From IMG/VR virus record IMGVR_UViG_3300036832_001166, positions 1-64,000 of that record: 64,000 bases of DNA. One strand, given 5' to 3'. The notes beneath the pieces are model-generated. The model searched no databases, was not told where the DNA came from, and saw nothing but the letters and a program-made list of their open reading frames with translations. Within the stretch, counting starts at the first letter, position 1. Each line of letters opens with the position of its first letter. A program made the translations under genes and the position numbers. The stretch is from a virus. Below are positions 669-59,434 of the stretch, in pieces.

Positions 669-1061
669 GTGCCCGGCTACTGGGAGCAGGTCGCAGTCCA
701 TGAGGCGCGCGGCGTTCCGCGGCCGGTCGCGATGCGCGCCGCCCGGATCATCCTGGAGCGCCGCGACCCGTCGCACATGGCGTGGGACGAGATCCTGCAT
801 CCCCGTAACCGCCGCGGCGAGTTCAGCGTCAGCGACGTCGCGCGCACGAAGCTCCCGGCGGGCCGGTTCCCGTCGATGACCGCGAAGCAGATCCACCGGA
901 TGCTGCGCAAGGCGGGGTTCCGGCATGTCGGCACCAAGGGCTCGCACGCGGTGTTCGAACCGCCCACCGGTGGACGTCGCGTGGTGGTGCCGATGCACAC
1001 CGGCTCGATCCCGCGCGGCACGCTGCGCAGCATCCTGACGACGGCCGGGGCGGCGATCTGA
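669..1061 (+). CDS. HicA-like mRNA interferase domain with N-terminal HPRNRRGEF motif
   Basis: A 130-residue protein. The last 60 residues match the HicA double-stranded RNA-binding toxin fold: KQIHRMLRKAGF, then KGSHAVFEPP with the conserved GSH whose His is catalytic in HicA, then VVVPMH and GTLRSILTTAG. No HicB-type antitoxin gene is adjacent. The N-terminal half ends in LHPRNRRGEF, a motif that recurs in two other large proteins here (22213 and 31167). The GTG start is chosen because the TACGAT box sits 6 nt upstream (leaderless). The domain call follows HicA family knowledge; function as an injected or resident toxin is inference. Confidence 0.72.
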   Translation: MPGYWEQVAVHEARGVPRPVAMRAARIILERRDPSHMAWDEILHPRNRRGEFSVSDVARTKLPAGRFPSMTAKQIHRMLRKAGFRHVGTKGSHAVFEPPTGGRRVVVPMHTGSIPRGTLRSILTTAGAAI

Positions 1062-20144: not shown

Positions 20145-20248
20145 TGGGTCAGATCCTGGTCGGCGTGATCGCTGGCCTGACGGTCCTGGTCGCGGTCGGC
20201 TTCGGCGTCGCCGCCTGGCAGGTGTGGAAGGACAAGGACGGGCTGTGA
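20144..20248 (+). CDS. Single-helix mini-membrane protein
   Basis: A 34-residue protein with one hydrophobic helix (ILVGVIAGLTVLVAVGFGVA) and a charged tail, WKDKDGL. GTG overlaps the upstream TAG; its own TGA overlaps the GTG of the methyltransferase. Confidence 0.55.
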   Translation: MGQILVGVIAGLTVLVAVGFGVAAWQVWKDKDGL

Positions 20249-20760
20249 CCGCCGCCGTCGCGCTGATCAACCCGAAGTTCCCGCGCAACGTCGGCAACGC
20301 GCTCCGCGCCTGCTCGAACTTCGGAGCGCGCTACTGCGCGTGGACGCCGGACCGCGTCGAGGCGCCGGAGGACTGGCCGTCCGGCGAGCGTCTGCCGCGC
20401 GAGGAGCGCATGCGCCTGTACGAGGACGTCACCGTGATCACGCACAGCCGGACGATCATCGTCACCCGGTTCGCCGCGATGGGGTTCACGCCGGTCGCGA
20501 TCGAGGTTCGCGACAGCGCTGAGCGCCTGCCCGAGTTCATCCATCCCGACAGGGCAATCTACGTGTTCGGCCCGGAGGACGCCTCGCTGGACCGCGGGAT
20601 CCTGTCGGCGTGCCACCGGTTCGTCGTTATCCCGGCATCCAACTGCCTAAACCTAGCGGCGGCCGTGAACGTCGTGCTCTATGACCGCGCCGCGAAGGAC
20701 GCTCGCCGGGCGGCGCGGATGCCGCGCGCCACGACCGCCTACATGCGGGCCGAGGGTTGA
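20245..20760 (+). CDS. SPOUT (TrmH/SpoU-type) RNA methyltransferase
   Basis: A 171-residue protein. Motif 1 is NPKFPRNVGNALRACSNFGA with the Arg of the NxGN-RA pattern; motif 2 is AIYVFGPEDASLDRGILS; motif 3 is FVVIPASNCLNLAAAVNVVL, forming the trefoil-knot AdoMet site. SpoU/TrmH enzymes add 2'-O-methyl groups to tRNA or rRNA. No extra N-terminal RNA-binding domain is present. A phage copy could modify its own tRNA-like RNAs or counter host tRNA damage; that target is inference. Confidence 0.85.
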   Translation: MTAAVALINPKFPRNVGNALRACSNFGARYCAWTPDRVEAPEDWPSGERLPREERMRLYEDVTVITHSRTIIVTRFAAMGFTPVAIEVRDSAERLPEFIHPDRAIYVFGPEDASLDRGILSACHRFVVIPASNCLNLAAAVNVVLYDRAAKDARRAARMPRATTAYMRAEG

Positions 20761-22212: not shown

Positions 22213-24999
22213 ATGGACCTCGTCACCATCGCGCGCGAGAACGCGACGCTTCGCGAGGAGTTCCTGCGCCGCGGACTGGTCACGGAGGACCGCCTGAACC
22301 AGCTCGGCTGGGTGTCGCACTCAGACCTTGACCTGTGGCAGGACGCGGGCGTGCTGGAGCTGGGCGTCCGCGGGCTGCAGGAGGCGTGGGGCCATAGCGT
22401 CCCCGGCGGCATCCGCGTCGGCGGCGGCGGCCGCCACGGCGCGTGGGGTCTCGGCGCCCTCAGCGGCGACGTCTTCAACCGACGGATCCTCCGCGGCCGC
22501 GGCGGCAGGTTCGCCGGGAGCATCGGCGGCAAGCAGGTCGCGCCCGGCGAGAAGCACAACCGGCGCATCGCGGCCATCCCGAGCCTGCCGCGCGTCTCAC
22601 GCATCGAGCATCCCGGCGCGAAGGAGGGCGCGCCGATCGCGACGGTCAAGACCCGCCGCGGGATCGGGCCGTCCAAGAAGCTGAAGGTGTACGCCACCCC
22701 AGCGAGCCGCGCTCGGCCGGGGCTGCCCGAGCGGATGAGCGGCGAGCAGGCGCAAGCCGAGTTCGCCAGCCAGGCCGCGCCCGCCATCGGGCATCCCGAG
22801 GAGCTGCACGCGCTCGGGAAGGAGCGTCTCAAGCGCATGGCTGACGCGGAGCACAAGGCCGGTGTCAGCGCCTGGCGCGCCGGGGACGTCGCCGCCGCCA
22901 ACAAGCACCACCGGACCGCGGGCGAGCACATGGCCTCGATCCACAATCCCGACGAGACGCTCAAGGCGGGCACCGCGGAGGTGTACGAGCGGCGCAGCAA
23001 GCGGCTGGAGAAGCGGATCTCGCGCCGGGTCGCGAAGGCCGGGAAGCAGAAGCGCACCCCAGCGGCCCGCCAGCCGCGCGGCGAGCACGACCTGAGCGCC
23101 GCCGAGGTTCACTTCAACGACGCCGGACGCGTCTCGCAGAAGACGCTGCTGGCCTACGTCGAGCAGGCCGCGACCAAGCCGACGACCGCGTCGATGTACC
23201 GCGACGCGAACGGCAACTACCACCCGTCCCGTCAGGCGTTGCACGCGGCGATCATCGACAAGCTGTTCCGCCAGCAGACCGACCAGGGCCTGAGCGGGAC
23301 GGCGCCCGAGCTGAAGCCGCCCGCCGACGGCAAGCCGACCGTGCATTTCACCGGCGGCGGCTACGCCAGCGGCAAGGGCGGCGTCATCAAGCAGCTCAAG
23401 GCGAAGGGCGAATGGCCCGAGGACGCGATGCTGCTCGACCCGGACCTGATCAAGGCGGAGCTGCCCGAGTTCCAGCACGCCGCGATGGACGACCCGGAGG
23501 CGAACCTGCGCGTCTACACCGAGGCGTGGGACATCGCGCAGCAGGCGATGAAGCTGGCGCAGGAGAAGAAGCTGAACGTGGTGGTCGACGGGATCACGAA
23601 CACGAGCCCCGACGAGGTCGCCAAGCGGCTGAAGAGCTTCACCGACGCGGGCTACGTCAACCCGCGGATCAGCTACGTCAGCGTGCCGACCGAGGAGGCG
23701 ATCTCCCGGGCGAGAGCGCGGGCGGAGAAGGCTAAGACCCCGGCGGACCGGCGGATGATCCCGGAGACGATCATGCGGTCCGTCCACCGTGACGTGTCGG
23801 CGACGCTGCCGGGCGTCCTGCAGCGCGCGAAGGAGATGGGCGCGCAGGTGCAGGTGTACGACACCAACCAGGGGCTCGACGAGACGACCGGGCGGCCGAA
23901 CGCGCCGAAGCTGGTGGCCGAGGCGATGCCGAACGGCCACATCCACTACCCGGACCCGGAGGGCTACCAGGCGATCCTGAACAAGGCGCAGGAGACGATC
24001 TCCGGCGTCCCGGACGTGCGGGCACCCGAGCAGGGCGCGTGGCGTACCGGCGGGCAGATCGTGAAGATCGACCCGGGCGTCGAGCGCAAGGTCGGCCAGG
24101 ATCTGATGCGCAGCATGCCGAACGCGGCCGAGCAGAAGCTGCCGCAGCCGACCAGCGATCCCGCTGACCTGCTCAAGATCGCGGAGGAGAAGGGCCTGCC
24201 CGCGTACCGGGCGCTGCTCGATCTCGGCGCGGGGATTGCACAGGCGCTCGGCGGTGACGTTCACGACATCTCGGCGGGCAAGGACTTCAAGCAGGTCGGC
24301 GAGGACATCGCCAGCAACATGAGCAAGCCGCACGTGATCATCGCGCCGGTCAAGAGCATGCGGCGAGCGTTGGAGAAGGCCGCGGCGGACGGCACCCCGA
24401 ACGACTTCTCTCACCTCCACGACGCGGTGCGCGCGACCGTGACCGTCCCGACGGCGCAGGATCTGCCGCACGCCATCGCGACGATCACCAAGGAGGCGGA
24501 GGCGCGCGGCTGGAAGGTGGAGCGCACCAAGGCGCGGCTGCTGAACGCGAAGGGCTCTAACCGGTCGGGCTCCAACGGCTACGGCGACACGACCCTGATC
24601 CTGCGCGCGCCGCCGGAGGCGGGCGGGATGACAGCCGAGCTGCAGATCAACACCAACCCGATGTGGTGGACCAAGGAGGTCGGGCCGGGCCACAAGTACT
24701 ACGAGCTGGAGCGCCAGATCACCGGCCGCGCGATGGCCGAGAAGCGCAAGCCGACGCCGCAGGAGTCCGACCTGGTCGGCAAGATCCAGGAGGCCGCCAA
24801 GCCGCTGTATGACCGCGCGCACGGCGCGTCGCTGAACGGCGGCATCACCGGCAACGCCGGGGACGCCGTGATGGGCAACGAGAGCGATCGCGCGCAGGCG
24901 CAGAGCACCCTCAAAGAGCTGGCTGACCAGACGGCCGGGATGATGGGCGGCCCGCCGACGCCGACGTCGCAGCGTGGCCGCAGGCCGAGGGCGGCGTGA
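22213..24999 (+). CDS. Polyvalent protein: zeta-toxin kinase plus RelA/SpoT-like domain
   Basis: A 928-residue protein. Residues 72-102 contain RHGAWG and the motif ILRGRGGRF. Residues about 372-555 are a zeta-toxin kinase: VHFTGGGYASGKGG (Walker A, 381-390), LLDPDLIKAELPEF, VVVDGITNTS and ISRARARAEK. Residues about 680-835 fit the RelA/SpoT nucleotidyltransferase fold: PVKSMRRALEK, HLHDAVRATV, SNGYGDTTLIL, TAELQINT (Glu809) and GHKYYE. Zeta toxins phosphorylate UDP-GlcNAc; RelA-like enzymes transfer pyrophosphate. A TACCAT box 9 nt upstream suggests a leaderless start. It is probably an injected or virion-linked multi-effector; delivery is inference. Confidence 0.83.
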   Translation: MDLVTIARENATLREEFLRRGLVTEDRLNQLGWVSHSDLDLWQDAGVLELGVRGLQEAWGHSVPGGIRVGGGGRHGAWGLGALSGDVFNRRILRGRGGRFAGSIGGKQVAPGEKHNRRIAAIPSLPRVSRIEHPGAKEGAPIATVKTRRGIGPSKKLKVYATPASRARPGLPERMSGEQAQAEFASQAAPAIGHPEELHALGKERLKRMADAEHKAGVSAWRAGDVAAANKHHRTAGEHMASIHNPDETLKAGTAEVYERRSKRLEKRISRRVAKAGKQKRTPAARQPRGEHDLSAAEVHFNDAGRVSQKTLLAYVEQAATKPTTASMYRDANGNYHPSRQALHAAIIDKLFRQQTDQGLSGTAPELKPPADGKPTVHFTGGGYASGKGGVIKQLKAKGEWPEDAMLLDPDLIKAELPEFQHAAMDDPEANLRVYTEAWDIAQQAMKLAQEKKLNVVVDGITNTSPDEVAKRLKSFTDAGYVNPRISYVSVPTEEAISRARARAEKAKTPADRRMIPETIMRSVHRDVSATLPGVLQRAKEMGAQVQVYDTNQGLDETTGRPNAPKLVAEAMPNGHIHYPDPEGYQAILNKAQETISGVPDVRAPEQGAWRTGGQIVKIDPGVERKVGQDLMRSMPNAAEQKLPQPTSDPADLLKIAEEKGLPAYRALLDLGAGIAQALGGDVHDISAGKDFKQVGEDIASNMSKPHVIIAPVKSMRRALEKAAADGTPNDFSHLHDAVRATVTVPTAQDLPHAIATITKEAEARGWKVERTKARLLNAKGSNRSGSNGYGDTTLILRAPPEAGGMTAELQINTNPMWWTKEVGPGHKYYELERQITGRAMAEKRKPTPQESDLVGKIQEAAKPLYDRAHGASLNGGITGNAGDAVMGNESDRAQAQSTLKELADQTAGMMGGPPTPTSQRGRRPRAA

Positions 25000-25742
25000 T
25001 GGCACGCGACCCGCTCGTGCCCGCGGATCCCGGCAGCACGCAGGACAGCAGCGTCGACCCGTCGCAGACGATCCCGAACCGCGGCCAGCCGCAGGGCAGC
25101 GACGACTCCGCCTACGACGGCGGCGAGTACGAGTACTGGCTGCGTGACGGCGTCACGCCGTACCGGACGCTCGGCCCGGCCGAGGCCGACGTGTTCTCGC
25201 AGCACGACAACGGCTGGATGATGCAGCACACCGTCGCCCGCGACAGCCTGTGGCCGTCAGGCCCGGGCGAGGTCGCGGGCATGATCGGCGGACGTCACCG
25301 CCTGACCGAGCCGACGAAGGGCGCGGCGCCGCTTGACCCGGGCCCCGGCGAGGACTTCGCGCCGGTCGAGTCGCCTGACTACATGGCCGAGGCCGACTCC
25401 GGCGGCGACCTGCCGCAGCCCGACGATGACGCGACGAACGTGGCGCAGCCGCCGCCGTCCGCGCAGGCCGACGGCCAAGACCTTCCCTCCGGCGGCATGA
25501 CTGAGGAGCAGATCCGCGACGCGGGCCTGCGCATCGACGTGCCGTTCGAGAGTCCGCTACCGGCGGACTTGAAGTACAAGGACACGGGACAGCAGGCGTG
25601 GACTCCGCCGCCGGGGTTCCGCCAAGGCCTGCCCCCGATCGACGACTGGCTCGCGGAGAGGCTTGGGGTGCCGCGAGACCTGGGAACGGAAGGGGCCGAG
25701 GGTGGCAGTGGCAGTGGAGATACCGGGGAGCCTGGCGACTGA
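24996..25742 (+). CDS. Disordered acidic protein next to the polyvalent gene
   Basis: A protein of about 248 residues, rich in Asp, Pro, Gly and Gln, with one ordered-looking stretch around YEYWLRDGVTPYRTLGPAEA. The GTG/ATG start overlaps the previous stop, so it is coupled to the zeta/RelA-like gene and may be its partner, chaperone or a virion protein. No family recognised. Confidence 0.58.
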   Translation: MMARDPLVPADPGSTQDSSVDPSQTIPNRGQPQGSDDSAYDGGEYEYWLRDGVTPYRTLGPAEADVFSQHDNGWMMQHTVARDSLWPSGPGEVAGMIGGRHRLTEPTKGAAPLDPGPGEDFAPVESPDYMAEADSGGDLPQPDDDATNVAQPPPSAQADGQDLPSGGMTEEQIRDAGLRIDVPFESPLPADLKYKDTGQQAWTPPPGFRQGLPPIDDWLAERLGVPRDLGTEGAEGGSGSGDTGEPGD

Positions 25743-31166: not shown

Positions 31167-32975
31167 GTGTCGGTCTCCGCACCCCCGCCTGCCGCTCCAG
31201 CCGCGCCTCCGCCCGGCGGCGGCACCGGTACGTGGAGCGCGCAGCTTCACCCGCGCGGCCGCGGCGGGAAGTGGATCGTCTCGCACGGCGCCGGGTACGG
31301 GCCCGCCGGGGCTGACCAGACCACCCAGCAGCTCCAGCAGCGCCTGAAGCAGCTCGGCTTCAATGTGCCCGCTGACGGCAAGTACGGGCCGCTGACCCAG
31401 CAGGCCGTCAAGGCGTTCCAGAACCGGTACGGGCTGACTCCCAGCGGCAGCGTCGACGCCGCGACGATGGAGGTCTTGCAGAACCCGCCCAGCCAGACGC
31501 TCAAGCAGGTGCAGACGGGCATGGCGGCCACCAAGAAGGCGGCGTCTACGGCCGCTCGCAAGACCGCCACCGCCAAGGCCAGGGCCAAGTCGAGCCAGCG
31601 TACGGCCAGGATCCGCGCGGGCTCAGGCAGCCCTACGCGGGCTCTGAACAGCACCGTGCAGGGGCCCGGCCATCTCGGCCAGGGCAACCTGCAGCAGGGC
31701 GCGGGCCTGACCGGCACCGCCAGCCCCGCGGTCTCCAACCTGCAGGCGACGCTCACCGCCGCCGGATACAAAGTCAACAAGGACGGGCGCTTCGGCCCGC
31801 AGACGGAGGCAGCCGTGAGACAGCTTCAGCAGGCGCACGGGCTCGCCGTTGACGGCGTCGTCGGACCCGAGACGAAGGGCCTGCTGATCGGGCTGGCGGC
31901 AAGCACCGCCAAGACGACGACGAGAGCCAAGCGCTCCGCCCGGATCACGAGCAAGTCGATCCCCGGGCAGCCCGCCGTCCTGCGCACCGCGGCGGGGACG
32001 CCACGTCACGGCAGCCGCAGCGCCGGGAGCCGCATGAAGCTGACGCCGCCGAAGAAGGGCCCGGGGATCCTGAAGTACTCGGCGGAGGTGCCGACTGAGC
32101 AGCCCGGGCTGGAGGAGACGACGGTCGCGTTCGGCTACGGCGGTCAGCCGTCGATGTCGATCAAGGATGCTCGCGATCAGGAGCCTGCCTACGACCAGCC
32201 GGTGTGGACCCGAACCAGCGTTCAGACTGACATCCCGGACCTGACCATCCAAGACGGCCGCGAGCCCTCCCCGCCGACACCGAAGCAGGGCGAGATCCTC
32301 GTCGACGGCCGCGAGCCGTCACCGCCGACGCTGCCCGGCCAGATGCTCGTCGACGGCCGCGAGCCCCCGCCGCCGCAGCCGACCGGCGACCTGACGATCC
32401 CGGACGGGCGCGTTCACGTCCAGACGATGACCCGGCTCGCCGAGGCCGTGCTGGCGCGCAGGGCCGCCAAGACCGGCGACGAGTTCGTGCGCGCCCGGGC
32501 TCGCGAGCGCGTGCTCCGCCAGCAGCTCGCCGAAGCCGGGCTGTACAAGGAGGCGCTTCACCCACGCGGCCGCGGCGGGAAGTGGATGCAGGCGCAGCGT
32601 GACCGGGTCGCGCCGTACTTCGATCTGACCAAGCCGCACGAGATGGTGCCCGTGGACGCGCTGCGGCCGACCAAGGAGGACCCGGAGTCGAGCTACCGCA
32701 ACGCCGCGAAGCGGATGGACGACGCGGCGCGAGGCGGGCTGGCGAAACGCAAGCCGGTGACCGCTCAGCGCGGCGCTGGCGGCAGGCTGCTGCTCGTCGA
32801 CGGTCACGCAACCGTGGAGGCACTCAAGCGCAAGGGCATCACGCACGTTCCGGCCGAGATCCGGCCGCGCGCCACGCCGCTGAACCCGAAGACCACGCAC
32901 GAGGCGATCCGCGAGCAGGAGCGGCTGGAGCGGGCCGCGATCGAACAAGAGAGCAAGCGAAGGAGAGCACGATGA
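31167..32975 (+). CDS. Polyvalent protein: two PG-binding domains plus ParB-like domain
   Basis: A 602-residue protein. LHPRGRGGKW occurs twice (27-36 and 464-473). Residues about 52-104 and 187-240 are peptidoglycan-binding type 1 repeats (RLKQLGFNVPADGKYGPLTQ; TLTAAGYKVNKDGRFGPQTE). Residues 358-415 hold short DGREP repeats. Residues 437-453 (EFVRARARERVLRQQL) recur in the next gene. Residues about 482-568 match a ParB/sulfiredoxin-type domain (VPVDALRPTK, KRKPVTAQ, LLLVDGHATVEALKRKG). The wall-binding part suggests delivery to the cell wall; the ParB-like part suggests a DNA-active effector. GTG start is leaderless. Confidence 0.8.
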   Translation: MSVSAPPPAAPAAPPPGGGTGTWSAQLHPRGRGGKWIVSHGAGYGPAGADQTTQQLQQRLKQLGFNVPADGKYGPLTQQAVKAFQNRYGLTPSGSVDAATMEVLQNPPSQTLKQVQTGMAATKKAASTAARKTATAKARAKSSQRTARIRAGSGSPTRALNSTVQGPGHLGQGNLQQGAGLTGTASPAVSNLQATLTAAGYKVNKDGRFGPQTEAAVRQLQQAHGLAVDGVVGPETKGLLIGLAASTAKTTTRAKRSARITSKSIPGQPAVLRTAAGTPRHGSRSAGSRMKLTPPKKGPGILKYSAEVPTEQPGLEETTVAFGYGGQPSMSIKDARDQEPAYDQPVWTRTSVQTDIPDLTIQDGREPSPPTPKQGEILVDGREPSPPTLPGQMLVDGREPPPPQPTGDLTIPDGRVHVQTMTRLAEAVLARRAAKTGDEFVRARARERVLRQQLAEAGLYKEALHPRGRGGKWMQAQRDRVAPYFDLTKPHEMVPVDALRPTKEDPESSYRNAAKRMDDAARGGLAKRKPVTAQRGAGGRLLLVDGHATVEALKRKGITHVPAEIRPRATPLNPKTTHEAIREQERLERAAIEQESKRRRAR

Positions 32976-51076: not shown

Positions 51077-52582
51077 ATGAGTGCCACGGTCACAGCGGAC
51101 CCTTCCACTGACACGCTTGAGCTGCGGGAGGCGATGTACGCGCTCCCGCGCAGCGCCGTCGAGTTCCCGATCGAGCTGCAAGAGGCGCGTGTTCAGCGGC
51201 TCGTCGACGACGGTCTCAGCCTGGAAGAAGCAGCCGCGCGCGAGGAGCAGGAGCGCTCCAAACTGCTGCCGCTGCACATCCTGCGGCCGTGCCTCGGCAA
51301 GGGCAAGGGCCGCCACCTCTACGAGGCCAAGATGCTGGAGGAGAACGCCACCAAGTTCGCGGGCTGGCGCCAGTACATCGACCATCTCTCCCCGGAGGCT
51401 CGCCGCGCCGCCAAGGGTCTGCCCCGCTCGATCCGCGACCTGGGCGGACGGATCGTCGAGAGCTACTGGGACGGCAGCGTGCCGCCCAACCCCGACAAGG
51501 GGTTCGACCAGGGCGCCGTGGTCGGCTGGTCGCTCCCGACACCGTTCATCCGTGAGCTGGCCGAGAACGACCCCGAGCTGGTCGAGGCGTCGATCTCCGC
51601 GAACGCCACCAGCGTGCAGCCGATCATGCGCGACGGCAAGCGAGCGTGGCTGGTCGAAGGCATCGAGGACCGCGGAAGCGTTGACTGGGTGACGGAGGCG
51701 GGCGCGGGCGGCCGCGTCGTCGCGTTGATGGAAGCTGCCTACGAGGAGGACGGGATGGGACTGCTTGAGTCCATGACCGACGAGGAGTTCATCGCCTACG
51801 TCGAAGAGGTGCGCCCCCACCTGCTCACCGAGCAGTCCGACGGCGACGCCGAGGATGCGAAGGATGGTGGCGACGACGAGCTGGAGGAAATGATCGCGCG
51901 GATGATGAAGCGCAATCCCAAGCTCACCCGCGGCCAGGCCGAGGCGATGGCCAAGAAGGCTCTCGCTCAGTCGAGTTCGTCAGTGGCGGAAGCCGAGATC
52001 ACAAAGGAGACAGACATGGGTGCGATCACCCCAGAGGCGCTCCAGGAGGCTCTCCAGAGTGAGGACTCTCGCGGCGCCCTTGAGACGATCATCGGGCCGC
52101 TCGTCGAGGAGCGCGTCAAGACGCTGGTCGAGACGGCGGTGGCGGGCGAGCGAGAGCTGATCCGCGCGGAGGCGCGCGCCGACGCTGACCGGCAGCTTGA
52201 GCTGCGCGACATGCGCGACGACGCGCACCGGCAGATCAGCGAGGCCAAGCTTCCCGGAGCGTTCACGGACCGTGCCAAGGCGCTGTTCGAGATCACCGAC
52301 GACGGCCCGACGTCGACGTTGGACGTTGTCGATGACGTCGACGACGACGGCCACGTCACCAAGAAGGCGGCCGACAAGCTCCAGGAGGCGGTGGATGCCG
52401 CCGTCCAGGATCAGCGCGAGCTGCTCGCCGCGGCGAACCCGACGACCGTCCGCGGTCAGGGTCCGGGCGCTCCCGCTAAGCGCGGCGAGGACGGGGAGGA
52501 GGCGAAGAAGGGCGAGGGAACGCTCTACGGCGCCTTGCTTCAGGAAGCAGGAGTCGATCCCTCCAAGGCGTGGGACGACTGA
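51077..52582 (+). CDS. Prohead protease fused to scaffold
   Basis: A 501-residue protein. The N-terminal ~230 residues (KLLPLHILRPCLGKGKGRHL, MLEENATKFAGWRQYIDHLS, LPRSIRDLGGRIVESYWDG, VEASISANATSVQP, VEGIEDRGSVDWVTEAGAGG) match prohead proteases that precede the capsid gene in actinophages. A charged linker leads to a helical C-terminal scaffold region. A strong internal ribosome site (AAAGGAGACAGAC) before ATG 52016 would release the scaffold alone. The position, just before decoration and capsid genes, fits. The protease cleaves scaffold and capsid during head maturation. Confidence 0.75.
   Translation: MSATVTADPSTDTLELREAMYALPRSAVEFPIELQEARVQRLVDDGLSLEEAAAREEQERSKLLPLHILRPCLGKGKGRHLYEAKMLEENATKFAGWRQYIDHLSPEARRAAKGLPRSIRDLGGRIVESYWDGSVPPNPDKGFDQGAVVGWSLPTPFIRELAENDPELVEASISANATSVQPIMRDGKRAWLVEGIEDRGSVDWVTEAGAGGRVVALMEAAYEEDGMGLLESMTDEEFIAYVEEVRPHLLTEQSDGDAEDAKDGGDDELEEMIARMMKRNPKLTRGQAEAMAKKALAQSSSSVAEAEITKETDMGAITPEALQEALQSEDSRGALETIIGPLVEERVKTLVETAVAGERELIRAEARADADRQLELRDMRDDAHRQISEAKLPGAFTDRAKALFEITDDGPTSTLDVVDDVDDDGHVTKKAADKLQEAVDAAVQDQRELLAAANPTTVRGQGPGAPAKRGEDGEEAKKGEGTLYGALLQEAGVDPSKAWDD
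52016..52582 (+). CDS. Nested scaffold protein (internal start)
   Basis: In-frame ATG after AAAGGAGACAGAC begins MGAITPEALQEALQSEDSRG and gives a 188-residue, mostly helical acidic protein (ERELIRAEARADADRQLELR). This copies the lambda C/Nu3 arrangement in which the scaffold is the 3' part of the protease gene. Expression of the short form is inference. Confidence 0.55.
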   Translation: MGAITPEALQEALQSEDSRGALETIIGPLVEERVKTLVETAVAGERELIRAEARADADRQLELRDMRDDAHRQISEAKLPGAFTDRAKALFEITDDGPTSTLDVVDDVDDDGHVTKKAADKLQEAVDAAVQDQRELLAAANPTTVRGQGPGAPAKRGEDGEEAKKGEGTLYGALLQEAGVDPSKAWDD

Positions 52583-53121: not shown

Positions 53122-54177
53122 ATGAACGGCAATCCATACGGGATCTTCGGGCGGCCGATCCGGCTGCTTGAGGCTTACCGCGAGTGGAGGGACGAGCGGA
53201 TGCTGGAGGAGGCCGACTCCAAGGCCGACTTCCCGTCGTTCCTGTTCGGCCCGGTCCGCCAGTCGATGTGGACCGGCTACAGCCGCGCGCAGGCACAGTA
53301 CCAGCGCTACACCCGGCAGGAGTCCGCGCCGGACTTCCGTGACCGGCGGCTGCGTGGCCTCAACGGCCTGCTCGGGATCGGCTACGTGGGCGACCACGGG
53401 CACTATCCCGGGCTGGCTCGCACGGAGCGCCCGGCGGCCCGGCTGGCGGTCGACACCTACGGTGGCGTCTACCAGATCACCCGCCAGGCGATCATCAACG
53501 ACGACAGCAACGAGCTGCTGAACCGCAACCCGGCCGACATGGGCTACGCGGCCGGGGTGTTCATCCTGCAGACCGTGATCGCGATGATCCAGAACCCCGG
53601 CAACGCGCCGGACGGCAACCCGTTCTACAGCGTCGGCCGCGGCAACCAGGTGGTCACGCCGCTGTCCGAGGACGCGATCGCGGACGCGATCGGGTTCATG
53701 GAGTCCCAGGTGGACGACGACGGCCGTCAGATCGTTGTCACGCCGAGCCTCCTGGTGGTCCGCAGCGCGCGGATGCAGATGATCGCCCAGCGGATCCTCA
53801 ACTCGACCCAGACCGGCGTCAACATCCAGTACGCGGGCGCCCCCGGGATTGGGTCCAACGTGTTCGACAAGGGCACGATCAACCCGCTGGCCGGGATCCT
53901 GCCCGCCGACGGCGTGATCCGCGACCCGTGGTTCTCGGACTCCAACGACTGGTATCTGTTCGCGGATCCGGGCGACGTTCCGGGGTTCGCGGTCGGCTTC
54001 CTCAACGGGCAGTCCGAGCCGCAGGTGATGCTCAAGGATCCGATGGTCCGGATGGCGCTCGGCGCCGGAACGGACCCGTACCAGTACGAACTCGATTCCG
54101 TCGACTTCAAGGTCCGTTCGGACTTCGGTGTCGCGCCCGTCGATCCGCGCGGCGCGTTCCGCGCCATCGTCCCCTGA
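53122..54177 (+). CDS. Major capsid protein, HK97 fold (gpT-like)
   Basis: A 351-residue protein. ARLAVDTYGGVYQITRQAII, NDDSNELLNRNPADMGYAAG, a central GRQIVVTPSLLVVRSARMQM and the closing FKVRSDFGVAPVDPRGAFRA are typical of gpT-like/HK97-fold capsid proteins, with E-loop, spine helix and P-domain order. CCAAGGAG precedes the ATG. It lies after protease, scaffold and decoration genes and is followed by a strong hairpin. It forms the icosahedral shell. Confidence 0.83.
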   Translation: MNGNPYGIFGRPIRLLEAYREWRDERMLEEADSKADFPSFLFGPVRQSMWTGYSRAQAQYQRYTRQESAPDFRDRRLRGLNGLLGIGYVGDHGHYPGLARTERPAARLAVDTYGGVYQITRQAIINDDSNELLNRNPADMGYAAGVFILQTVIAMIQNPGNAPDGNPFYSVGRGNQVVTPLSEDAIADAIGFMESQVDDDGRQIVVTPSLLVVRSARMQMIAQRILNSTQTGVNIQYAGAPGIGSNVFDKGTINPLAGILPADGVIRDPWFSDSNDWYLFADPGDVPGFAVGFLNGQSEPQVMLKDPMVRMALGAGTDPYQYELDSVDFKVRSDFGVAPVDPRGAFRAIVP

Positions 54178-57363: not shown

Positions 57364-58878
57364 ATGCCTGGCGTCTTCTCCAAGAGTGCGCGACCGGCTC
57401 GACCGGGCGCCTACTTCGACTGGGCCTCGGTGCCCGTGTCGACCATCCTGCCGAACATCGGCTCGGTCGTGCTGGTGGCGATCACGCACGACTGGGGTCC
57501 GGCCGGGACGGTCGTGTCGTGCGGCTCGCTGGGGGACTTCCAGGCCGCGTTCGGGATGACCACCCTGATCGGCGGCGCGCCAGCGCCCGGCTACGCAGCG
57601 GTCAAGCAGTGCTTCAAGGGCGAGGGTCTTGCTGGTCGCGGCGGCGCTGGAACGGTCCTTGTCTACCGCATGGTCGGCACCAGCGGCAAGGCGGCGACGA
57701 TCACGATTCAGAACACAACGCCCGCCAATGCGCTCTCTCTCACCGCTAAGTACCCGGGCGCGTTCGGCAATCAGATCGGCTTCAAGAGCCACGTCAACGC
57801 TGCGGATGCGACGAAGAATGACCTGCAGATCTGGGTCGCCGGGCAGATGGTCGAGGTGTACACCTACACGAAGGCCACGATTTCGAGCCTGGTCACTCAG
57901 ATCAACGATCCGATCGCGGGCTCGGACTGGGTGACGGCCACGCTCATTCTCGACGGGACGGCGCTCCCGGTCACCACAACGCCGGACACGGTCACATCGC
58001 TGGCCACGGGGGACAGCGGCTCGACGCTCGTCCAGCAGGACTGGGTCAACATGACCAACGGGGTCACCGGCGCTCGCTTCTCGCTGTTCGCCGGGTACGA
58101 CGTGACCGACCCGACGACGCTGACCGCGCTGCAGGGATGGTGTTCGAACGCCAACGTGACGGGTCACCGGTTCATGATGGTCTGCGGCGGAGCGGCCAGC
58201 GACACGGCCGTCACGGCCATCGCACGCTCGGCGTCGATCGTGACGGCGTCACAGGCGGCGGGCACCAGCGGGGAGAACACGGTCAATCTCGGCGTCGGGT
58301 CGCTGTACGACTCCGACCTTGGCGCCACGCTCTCGACCTCGCAGCTTGCGCCACGAGTGGCGGGCATCCTGGCGGCGCGCGGCGAGTCGATGAGCATCAC
58401 GTTCGCGCGACTGGCGGATACGTCGGCGGGAGTGCTCCCGATCGACTCAGACGTCACGAAGTGCTTCAACGGCGGCGTTGTCGTGTTCGGTCAGGACTCC
58501 AACCCGGACTCGCCGATCCGGATCGAGAAGGGCCTGACCTGCTACATCGGCGGCGACTCCACCAAGCCGTACCTGATCTACCGTCAGCCGAAGTTCATGC
58601 GCACGATGCACGGCATCGAGCTGGACATCACCGAGTGGGCTGCGTCCAACGCGATCGGATCGCTGCAGGTCAACGACGCCACGCGCGCGTTCATCGTCGG
58701 TTACGCCCATTCGGCGATTCAGGCGCGCGCGGATCGAGGCGTGATCCAGACGGGCTTCAGTGTCGGCATCGACCCGATTCCGCCGCCGAGTGACGACGAC
58801 GAGTTCGTGGCCCTGCTCTACGGCATTGCGTTCGGCCGCTCCGTCGAGCAGATCTACAACCTCGTGTACATCAGCTAG
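57364..58878 (+). CDS. Tail sheath protein
   Basis: A 504-residue protein. PARPGAYFDWASVPVSTILP, GSVVLVAITHDWGPAGTVVS, FQAAFGMTTLIGG and ARVAGILAARGESMSITFAR with the C-terminal DDEFVALLYGIAFGRSVEQI match contractile tail sheath proteins. This marks a myovirus or contractile particle. It assembles round the tube and contracts on adsorption. Confidence 0.88.
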   Translation: MPGVFSKSARPARPGAYFDWASVPVSTILPNIGSVVLVAITHDWGPAGTVVSCGSLGDFQAAFGMTTLIGGAPAPGYAAVKQCFKGEGLAGRGGAGTVLVYRMVGTSGKAATITIQNTTPANALSLTAKYPGAFGNQIGFKSHVNAADATKNDLQIWVAGQMVEVYTYTKATISSLVTQINDPIAGSDWVTATLILDGTALPVTTTPDTVTSLATGDSGSTLVQQDWVNMTNGVTGARFSLFAGYDVTDPTTLTALQGWCSNANVTGHRFMMVCGGAASDTAVTAIARSASIVTASQAAGTSGENTVNLGVGSLYDSDLGATLSTSQLAPRVAGILAARGESMSITFARLADTSAGVLPIDSDVTKCFNGGVVVFGQDSNPDSPIRIEKGLTCYIGGDSTKPYLIYRQPKFMRTMHGIELDITEWAASNAIGSLQVNDATRAFIVGYAHSAIQARADRGVIQTGFSVGIDPIPPPSDDDEFVALLYGIAFGRSVEQIYNLVYIS

Positions 58879-58888
58879 GAGGTGAGCG

Positions 58889-59434
58889 ATGCCTGACATC
58901 GGATCAAGCGAGGGCCTGTATCGGTTCTCGGGGATGTACGGCTACGTGATCATGGACGGCTTCGTCCGTGCCGAGATCACGAACGTCACGGCGACGATCA
59001 CGATCGCCAAGGTCGAGCTGCCGCTCGTGGGCTCCACCCGCATGGGCATCAAGCCCGGCCGGGAGACGCGCGACGGCACCTTCTCGGTGCAGAAGATCGA
59101 CACGCACTGGGAGAAGTACGTGTACAGCTACCTGTCGCAGAGCCTCGCGCAGCGGCGCGCCGCGCGTGGGACGCAAGCGGGCATGATGCGGGCGTTCGCG
59201 ATGCAGGTGTGGCTGGACGACCCGGACGCGCTCGGGTTTGAGGTGTGGCAGCTCAACGGCTGCCTCATCTGGGATCTGCCGCTTGGGTTTGACATCACCG
59301 CCGACGTCATCGACAAGCAGTTCAGCTTCGGCTGGGAGACCGAGAAGCCGCTGGAGAGCTTCGAGATCAACCAGGGTCAGACCAACCCGGCCACCGGCCA
59401 GCCCGCGGTCTCGGTGCTCGACTCGCTGAGCTGA
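58889..59434 (+). CDS. Tail tube protein (XkdM-like)
   Basis: A 181-residue beta protein. GYVIMDGFVRAEITNVTATI, GSTRMGIKPGRETRDGTFSV and YSYLSQSLAQRRAARG follow the XkdM/DUF2001 tube plan. GGAGGTGAGCG precedes the ATG, 10 nt after the sheath stop. It forms the inner tube through which DNA passes. Confidence 0.82.
   Translation: MPDIGSSEGLYRFSGMYGYVIMDGFVRAEITNVTATITIAKVELPLVGSTRMGIKPGRETRDGTFSVQKIDTHWEKYVYSYLSQSLAQRRAARGTQAGMMRAFAMQVWLDDPDALGFEVWQLNGCLIWDLPLGFDITADVIDKQFSFGWETEKPLESFEINQGQTNPATGQPAVSVLDSLS

What the first reader, a model, noticed from the sequence alone, without database searches (positions are those of the whole stretch)
22213..24999. Zeta-type kinase and RelA/SpoT-like domain in one polyvalent protein
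Two toxin-class enzymes, one aimed at UDP-sugar precursors and one at nucleotide pyrophosphorylation, are joined in one 928-residue phage protein with no adjacent antitoxin. It could be injected to stop host wall synthesis and metabolism at once, or to attack competing phages.
Basis: partly seen in the sequence, partly recalled or inferred. Interest (0 to 1): 0.85.

Follow-up and report, generated by a model that had tools for sequence, protein, structure and literature searches.

The report
Two-enzyme phage head-cargo protein
A soil myophage makes one protein joining a zeta-toxin-like kinase to a RelA-like enzyme fold, probably carried in the phage head into the host; it is a new combination of known kinds, and it led to a short motif that marks head-delivered enzymes in many phages.

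Summary
The 928-aa ORF at 22213-24999 is real. It has a significant zeta kinase domain (370-550, Pfam E 1e-22; Walker Lys388 present) and a C-terminal domain (about 675-840) with the RelA/SpoT fold: the top nine Foldseek PDB hits are all alarmone synthetases. Asp737, Tyr790 and Glu809 are retained, but several donor- and acceptor-pocket residues are replaced, so activity and substrate are unknown. The full architecture recurs in four phages (52-72% identity); two further contigs hold only the C-terminal half. "No adjacent antitoxin" is doubtful: an acidic 247-aa gene overlaps the stop codon in 6 of 6 loci, and the phage encodes an alarmone-hydrolase-like domain in a gene near its presumed portal. 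The N-terminus carries a decayed copy (intact in two relatives) of a border motif, [FWY]xEx[LK]HPR[DG]xxG[KR][FW], that also precedes HicA, CCA-adding, hydrolase, NUDIX and cytidylate-kinase domains, and elsewhere joins portals, head proteases and minor head proteins to effector domains. In this clade a T4-like LxE|A site lies about seven residues upstream. Best reading: an injected polyvalent effector processed in the prohead. Zeta and RelA domains in polyvalent proteins are published; the fusion and the motif appear new.

The parts
22213..24999 (+). 928-aa polyvalent protein (P0001)
   Evidence: homologues
22213..22383 (+). residues 1-57, conserved N-terminal leader ending in GLQE|A; predicted propeptide removed by the prohead protease (inferred)
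   Evidence: leader and LQE conserved in P0001, L001, L002, L071 with varying next residue A/T/S/V
22480..22512 (+). residues 90-100 RRILRGRGGRF, decayed copy of the LHPRGRGGKW border motif (intact in L002 and L071)
   Evidence: alignment; motif
23320..23862 (+). zeta-toxin-like kinase domain, residues 370-550; Walker Lys388, D409/D411
   Evidence: Pfam PF06414 E 9.9e-23; PHROG 16619 minor head protein E 5e-16; residue numbers
23914..23925 (+). VAE|A (residues 568-571), second possible LxE|A site between the two enzyme domains; present in 3 of 4 full-length homologues
   Evidence: the total number of such sites in this protein is not above chance, so weak
24235..24732 (+). RelA/SpoT-fold domain, residues about 675-840 (K714, K722, D737, Y790, E809 retained; acceptor-pocket residues changed)
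24999..25742 (+). acidic 247-aa partner gene (net charge -30), overlaps the stop codon of P0001 as TGATG; conserved in 6 of 6 loci; no Pfam family
669..1061 (+). HicA toxin domain preceded by the motif WDEILHPRNRRGEF
31167..32975 (+). peptidoglycan-binding plus ParB-nuclease-like (weak) protein with two copies of the motif
51077..52582 (+). probable prohead protease-scaffold protein (assignment by synteny and weak profiles); 15 LxE[AGS] sites against 3.4 expected
   Evidence: fold prediction uninformative
53122..54177 (+). major capsid protein; conserved N-terminal LxE|A sites, the capsid family match begins at residue 31, directly after MLEE|A

Best explanation
P0001 is a polyvalent effector carried in the phage head. 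Its N-terminal leader (about 57 residues) and the border motif behind it would bring it into the prohead. The phage's head protease would then cut after GLQE57 (and possibly after VAE570, between the enzymes), as T4 gp21 trims internal proteins. The processed enzymes would enter the host with the DNA. The zeta-like kinase probably phosphorylates a nucleotide-sugar precursor of the cell wall. The RelA-like domain probably moves pyrophosphate from ATP onto an acceptor that is neither the standard GDP/GTP nor the Apk2-type ATP/ADP. The coupled acidic gene and the phage's own alarmone-hydrolase-like domain are candidates for keeping the activities in check. Shown: the ORF, both folds, residue retention and loss, conserved architecture, motif, site enrichment, conserved partner gene. 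Inferred: packaging, cleavage, injection, both activities, role of the partner.
For: Folds. Architecture conserved in G000, G001, G002, G004, plus C-terminal halves at contig ends in G003 and G014. Motif: 75 instances in this clade, aromatic at -5 in 69 and Glu at -3 in 57; the independent KHPRDxxGKF set of 85 has the same register (80 and 79), and neither position was in the search pattern. KHPRDxxGKF gave 95 stretches in viral contigs, a scrambled pattern of equal degeneracy gave 0. Of 58 proteins with the wider motif, many match portals (19 to phrog_15528, 11 to Phage_portal_3), head maturation proteases (7 to DUF2213), minor head proteins, or polyvalent effectors (LPD3, ART, Zeta, NUDIX, PBECR1, DarB-like). 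LxE|[AGSM] within 16 aa upstream: 52 of 75 against 9.9 in shuffled windows (maximum 23), mostly at exactly 7 residues. Probable scaffold: 15 sites against 3.4 expected, 0 of 5000 shuffles; tail sheath and tube: none. Precedents: PMC5512222 (zeta and RelA in polyvalent and MuF proteins), PMC9958956 (T4 gp21 trims internal proteins), PMC5694885 (giant-phage and T4 head proteases cut after Glu), PMC12810830 (P1 DarA cut by prohead protease).
Against: No proteomics, cleavage or activity data. P0001 and L001 carry a decayed motif (HP lost, insert before it), so it may not work in them. The 75 instances are related to each other, so the counts are not independent. LxE sites in P0001 as a whole are not above chance (3 against 3.3). 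The protease is assigned by synteny and weak profiles; its model failed. The P0001 gene is not next to the portal or capsid genes. RelA residues R241, K304, H312 and the syn4 Arg are not kept. The hydrolase domain is absent from G004, which has the RelA-like domain, and present in G005, which lacks it.
Confidence: 0.58

Rival explanations
1. P0001 and the overlapping acidic gene form a toxin-antitoxin or toxin-immunity pair that acts inside the producing cell (takeover or superinfection exclusion); the protein is not packaged and the N-terminal motif is an evolutionary remnant.
For: TGATG overlap and conservation of the acidic partner in 6 of 6 loci; the gene lies away from the portal and capsid genes; the motif is decayed in P0001 and L001.
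Against: The motif is intact in L002 and L071 and the LQE site is kept in all four full-length homologues; zeta domains of other phages carry the same motif; the partner matches no antitoxin family.
Confidence: 0.22
2. The RelA-like domain is a degenerate or repurposed nucleotidyltransferase without alarmone activity, for example binding or modifying tRNA, DNA or a protein, and only the zeta kinase is an active enzyme. (This concerns one domain and can be true together with the best explanation's delivery route.)
For: Guanosine-recognition SxH is replaced by DTx with a variable last residue, syn4 Arg by Asn or Thr, R241 by Pro; Pfam score below cut-off in all homologues.
Against: Asp737, Tyr790, Glu809, Lys714 and Lys722 are retained in the aligned homologues, which argues for a working active site of some kind.
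Confidence: 0.4
3. The LxE|A element is not a protease site but part of a conserved helix-loop that binds head protein or DNA; the motif is a docking tag only and the polyproteins stay uncut. (This concerns the cleavage step only.)
For: LxEA fits an amphipathic helix by chance; the wider KHPRD set mostly lacks the upstream element; total LxE counts in cargo proteins are not raised.
Against: Fixed spacing of 7 residues in most instances, varied residue after Glu, the same site at the capsid-protein border where the capsid family begins (residue 31), and strong enrichment in the probable scaffold.
Confidence: 0.3

Closest known systems
Polyvalent proteins of phages and conjugative elements (Iyer et al. 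2017, PMC5512222)
   Same: Multidomain phage protein with effector domains; that paper already reports zeta-like kinases and RelA/SpoT domains in polyvalent and MuF-fused phage proteins and proposes that such proteins act during invasion.
   Different: In the passages read here zeta and RelA/SpoT domains are discussed separately, not together in one chain; no HPR border motif or LxE|A processing site turned up in the text search.
MuF-Apk2 toxins with IapK and Aph1 immunity (PMC12226406)
   Same: Head-associated phage protein with a C-terminal RelA-like domain; Aph1 is an alarmone hydrolase, and this phage also has a hydrolase domain whose best PDB match is a (p)ppApp hydrolase (7smg, E 1.7e-10).
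   Different: P0001 has no detectable MuF domain, carries an additional zeta kinase, lacks the Apk2 syn2 RYT and syn3 GxN signatures, and the hydrolase domain is not adjacent but sits in a separate motif-tagged protein.
Phage T4 internal proteins and Alt trimmed by gp21; P1 DarA trimmed by Pro (PMC9958956, PMC12810830)
   Same: N-terminal leader, predicted head-protease cut after Glu (as in T4), probable ejection with DNA.
   Different: Sequence-unrelated; in this clade the site recurs before each cargo domain of polyproteins.
Cyanophage PSS2 minor head protein (GQ334450)
   Same: 30% identity over the zeta region in a protein annotated as minor head protein.
   Different: Similarity covers residues 331-553 only; no match to the RelA-like region.

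Membership tests
Zeta toxin kinases (PF06414) | Pfam score above the curated cut-off and Walker A lysine | tested here: met
   81.1 bits against 22.3; GGGYASGKGG with Lys388
Epsilon/zeta toxin-antitoxin systems | Adjacent epsilon-type antitoxin | tested here: not met
   neighbouring genes scanned have no antitoxin match; the acidic partner has no Pfam hit
RelA/SpoT homologues and small alarmone synthetases | Shared fold | tested here: met
   top nine PDB fold matches are alarmone synthetases or SpoT/Rel; model of moderate confidence
RelA/SpoT homologues and small alarmone synthetases | Pfam RelA_SpoT above cut-off | tested here: not met
   15.5 bits against 27 in P0001; 15.2 bits in G014; no homologue over the cut-off
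RelA/SpoT homologues and small alarmone synthetases | Catalytic Asp and Glu plus guanosine-recognising SxH and syn4 Arg | tested here: not met
   Asp737, Tyr790, Glu809 kept; SxH and syn4 Arg replaced
MuF-Apk2 toxins | N-terminal MuF domain | tested here: not met
   no MuF match in P0001
MuF-Apk2 toxins | syn2 RYT and syn3 GxN signatures | tested here: not met
   AVR at syn2, GYGDT at syn3
Polyvalent proteins | Several effector-type domains in one phage protein | tested here: met
   zeta kinase and RelA-like fold in one ORF
Polyvalent proteins | Delivered in the virion | not testable with these tools
   only indirect support from the motif and precedents
Prohead-protease-processed head proteins | Protease-type cut site near the N-terminus | tested here: inconclusive
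   conserved GLQE|; strong enrichment of LxE|A at motif borders, but no cleavage data

The most novel reading that the evidence does not exclude
The motif [FWY]xEx[LK]HPR[DG]xxG[KR][FW] is a general, undescribed signal in tailed phages that marks protein modules for loading into the head, where in some clades the prohead protease cuts beside it and so turns polyproteins into sets of separately injected enzymes, including P0001's zeta kinase and RelA-like domain.
Probability: 0.42. Interest if true: 0.82.

Novelty: new variant of a known kind. Interest (0 to 1): 0.62.

Why it matters
If right, a short motif makes injected phage enzymes findable by sequence alone, well beyond families with known domains, and suggests that one head protease can release a whole set of effectors from polyproteins. 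It would also give a defined place to ask why phages carry both a RelA-like enzyme and an alarmone hydrolase. Cultured Gordonia phages with the motif (GodonK, Phendrix) make it testable now.

Tried and rejected
Sequence search of the PDB with P0001, and with alignments of each half, gave only chance hits. A genome-contig scan with the RelA-like alignment found no relatives in cellular genomes. AF2 of the probable protease failed (pLDDT 49) and its fold search was empty, so no fold claim is made. Pairing of the RelA-like and hydrolase domains as a strict couple was rejected: G004 has the first without the second, G005 the reverse. My reading of the 106782 protein as MuF-like rests on position and a Cys/His pattern seen by eye; Pfam, PHROGs and tblastn give no support, so it is not used as evidence. 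The portal assignment at 102696 is likewise by eye, with only a weak match to a hypothetical protein of Methanoculleus virus Blf4. Literature searches for the motif found nothing, but the library is limited and motif logos cannot be searched.

Full report
What is there. The window is half of a 125,432-base virus record of a myophage: tail sheath at 57364, tail tube at 58889, major capsid protein at 53122. The ORF at 22213-24999 encodes 928 residues. Full-length homologues exist in three other viral contigs, L001 (72%), L002 (57%) and L071 (52%), and two contigs, L003 and L072, begin inside the C-terminal half. The architecture is therefore conserved, not a chance fusion.

Zeta half. PF06414 matches residues 370-550 at 9.9e-23. 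Walker A reads GGGYASGKGG with Lys388; the DxD409-411 and RRMIP elements are kept. The Walker Ser/Thr is Gly in all homologues. Zeta domains recur without the RelA-like part in other records of this clade: zeta in 10 of 18 records searched, RelA-like in 6 of 18. The RelA-like half thus looks like the more variable addition, though many records are fragments.

RelA half. Pfam alone is below cut-off. An AF2 model from four homologues (mean pLDDT 63, core blocks about 75-87) has SAS2, SAS1, an exported Streptomyces SAS, Rel and SpoT as its first nine PDB matches. Profile alignment with E. coli RelA and SpoT puts Asp737, NGY788-790 and Glu809 on the catalytic Asp, the GY loop and the catalytic Glu (E 0.0028, probability only 11% because both alignments are shallow). 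Residues of the donor and acceptor sites differ: Pro712 in place of R241, DTx in place of SxH, Asn or Thr in place of the syn4 Arg (RSH numbering from my own knowledge). Apk2 enzymes have RYT at syn2 and GxN at syn3 (PMC12226406); P0001 has AVR and GYGDT. It belongs to the fold, but its product cannot be named.

Antitoxin question. The next gene (24999-25742, 247 aa, net charge -30) shares the TGATG overlap with P0001 in 6 of 6 loci and matches no Pfam family. It could be immunity protein, chaperone or loading factor. Elsewhere in the genome (111627-112106) a domain resembles small alarmone hydrolases, best PDB match a (p)ppApp hydrolase at 1.7e-10. It occurs in G000-G003, not in G004, and in G005 without the RelA-like domain, so pairing is possible but not strict.

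Motif. Scanning the phage's proteins I noticed LHPR(G/D)RxGKW before unrelated domains: HicA (669-1061), peptidoglycan binding (31167), GNAT, CCA-adding enzyme, hydrolase. L002 and L071 carry it intact near the N-terminus of the P0001 homologue; P0001 and L001 have a decayed form, RRILRGRGGRF. Pattern scans of viral contigs gave 75 distinct instances in this clade; further downstream domains include NUDIX, cytidylate kinase, zeta and LAGLIDADG. A wider pattern, KHPRDxxGKF, hit 95 stretches against 0 for a scrambled version. Its 58 longer proteins match portals, head maturation proteases, minor head proteins and polyvalent effector domains. Both sets share an aromatic at -5 and Glu at -3 that were not in the patterns. 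In Gordonia phage GodonK the motif opens the 1479-aa protein directly after the portal gene.

Cleavage site. In this clade [LIVMF]xE|[AGSM] lies upstream of 52 of 75 motifs, usually at exactly seven residues, against 9.9 in shuffled windows. The instances are related, so this is not a probability. The probable protease-scaffold protein (51077) has 15 such sites against 3.4 expected, tail sheath and tube none. The capsid family match begins at residue 31, right after MLEE|A, and relatives have capsid-protease fusions. P0001 has GLQE57|A at the end of its conserved leader. T4, phiKZ and SPN3US head proteases also cut after Glu (PMC5694885).

Interpretation. The most economical reading is a head-loaded, probably protease-trimmed polyvalent effector. 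Delivery and activities are inferred. Zeta and RelA domains in polyvalent proteins, including MuF fusions, are published (PMC5512222), so the class is not new; the two-enzyme chain and the motif with its cut site are what I could not find described.

Noticed in passing
window 669-1061: HicA toxin domain directly behind the head-cargo motif; the neighbouring genes scanned have no HicB antitoxin match. A similar ORF lies in L003 4445-4828.
   Followed up: partly
L008 5935-9015 (genome 109935-113018): One protein with a CCA-adding-enzyme-like part, an alarmone-hydrolase-like domain and DUF7178, each of the first two behind a copy of the motif.
   Followed up: partly
L079 13953-18392 (Gordonia phage GodonK gp67): 1479-aa protein directly after the portal gene that begins with the motif; a cultured test case.
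   Followed up: partly
window 20245-20757: SpoU-type RNA methyltransferase, 98% identical in L001, far above the 72% of P0001: possibly a recent transfer or strong constraint.
   Followed up: no
L022 4688-6364: Cytidylate kinase domain starting about nine residues after the motif HPRGRGGEW.
   Followed up: no
L080-L171: The KHPRDxxGKF form of the motif is usually followed by Gly/Ser-rich linkers and joins portals, proteases and effectors in many unrelated phages.
   Followed up: partly
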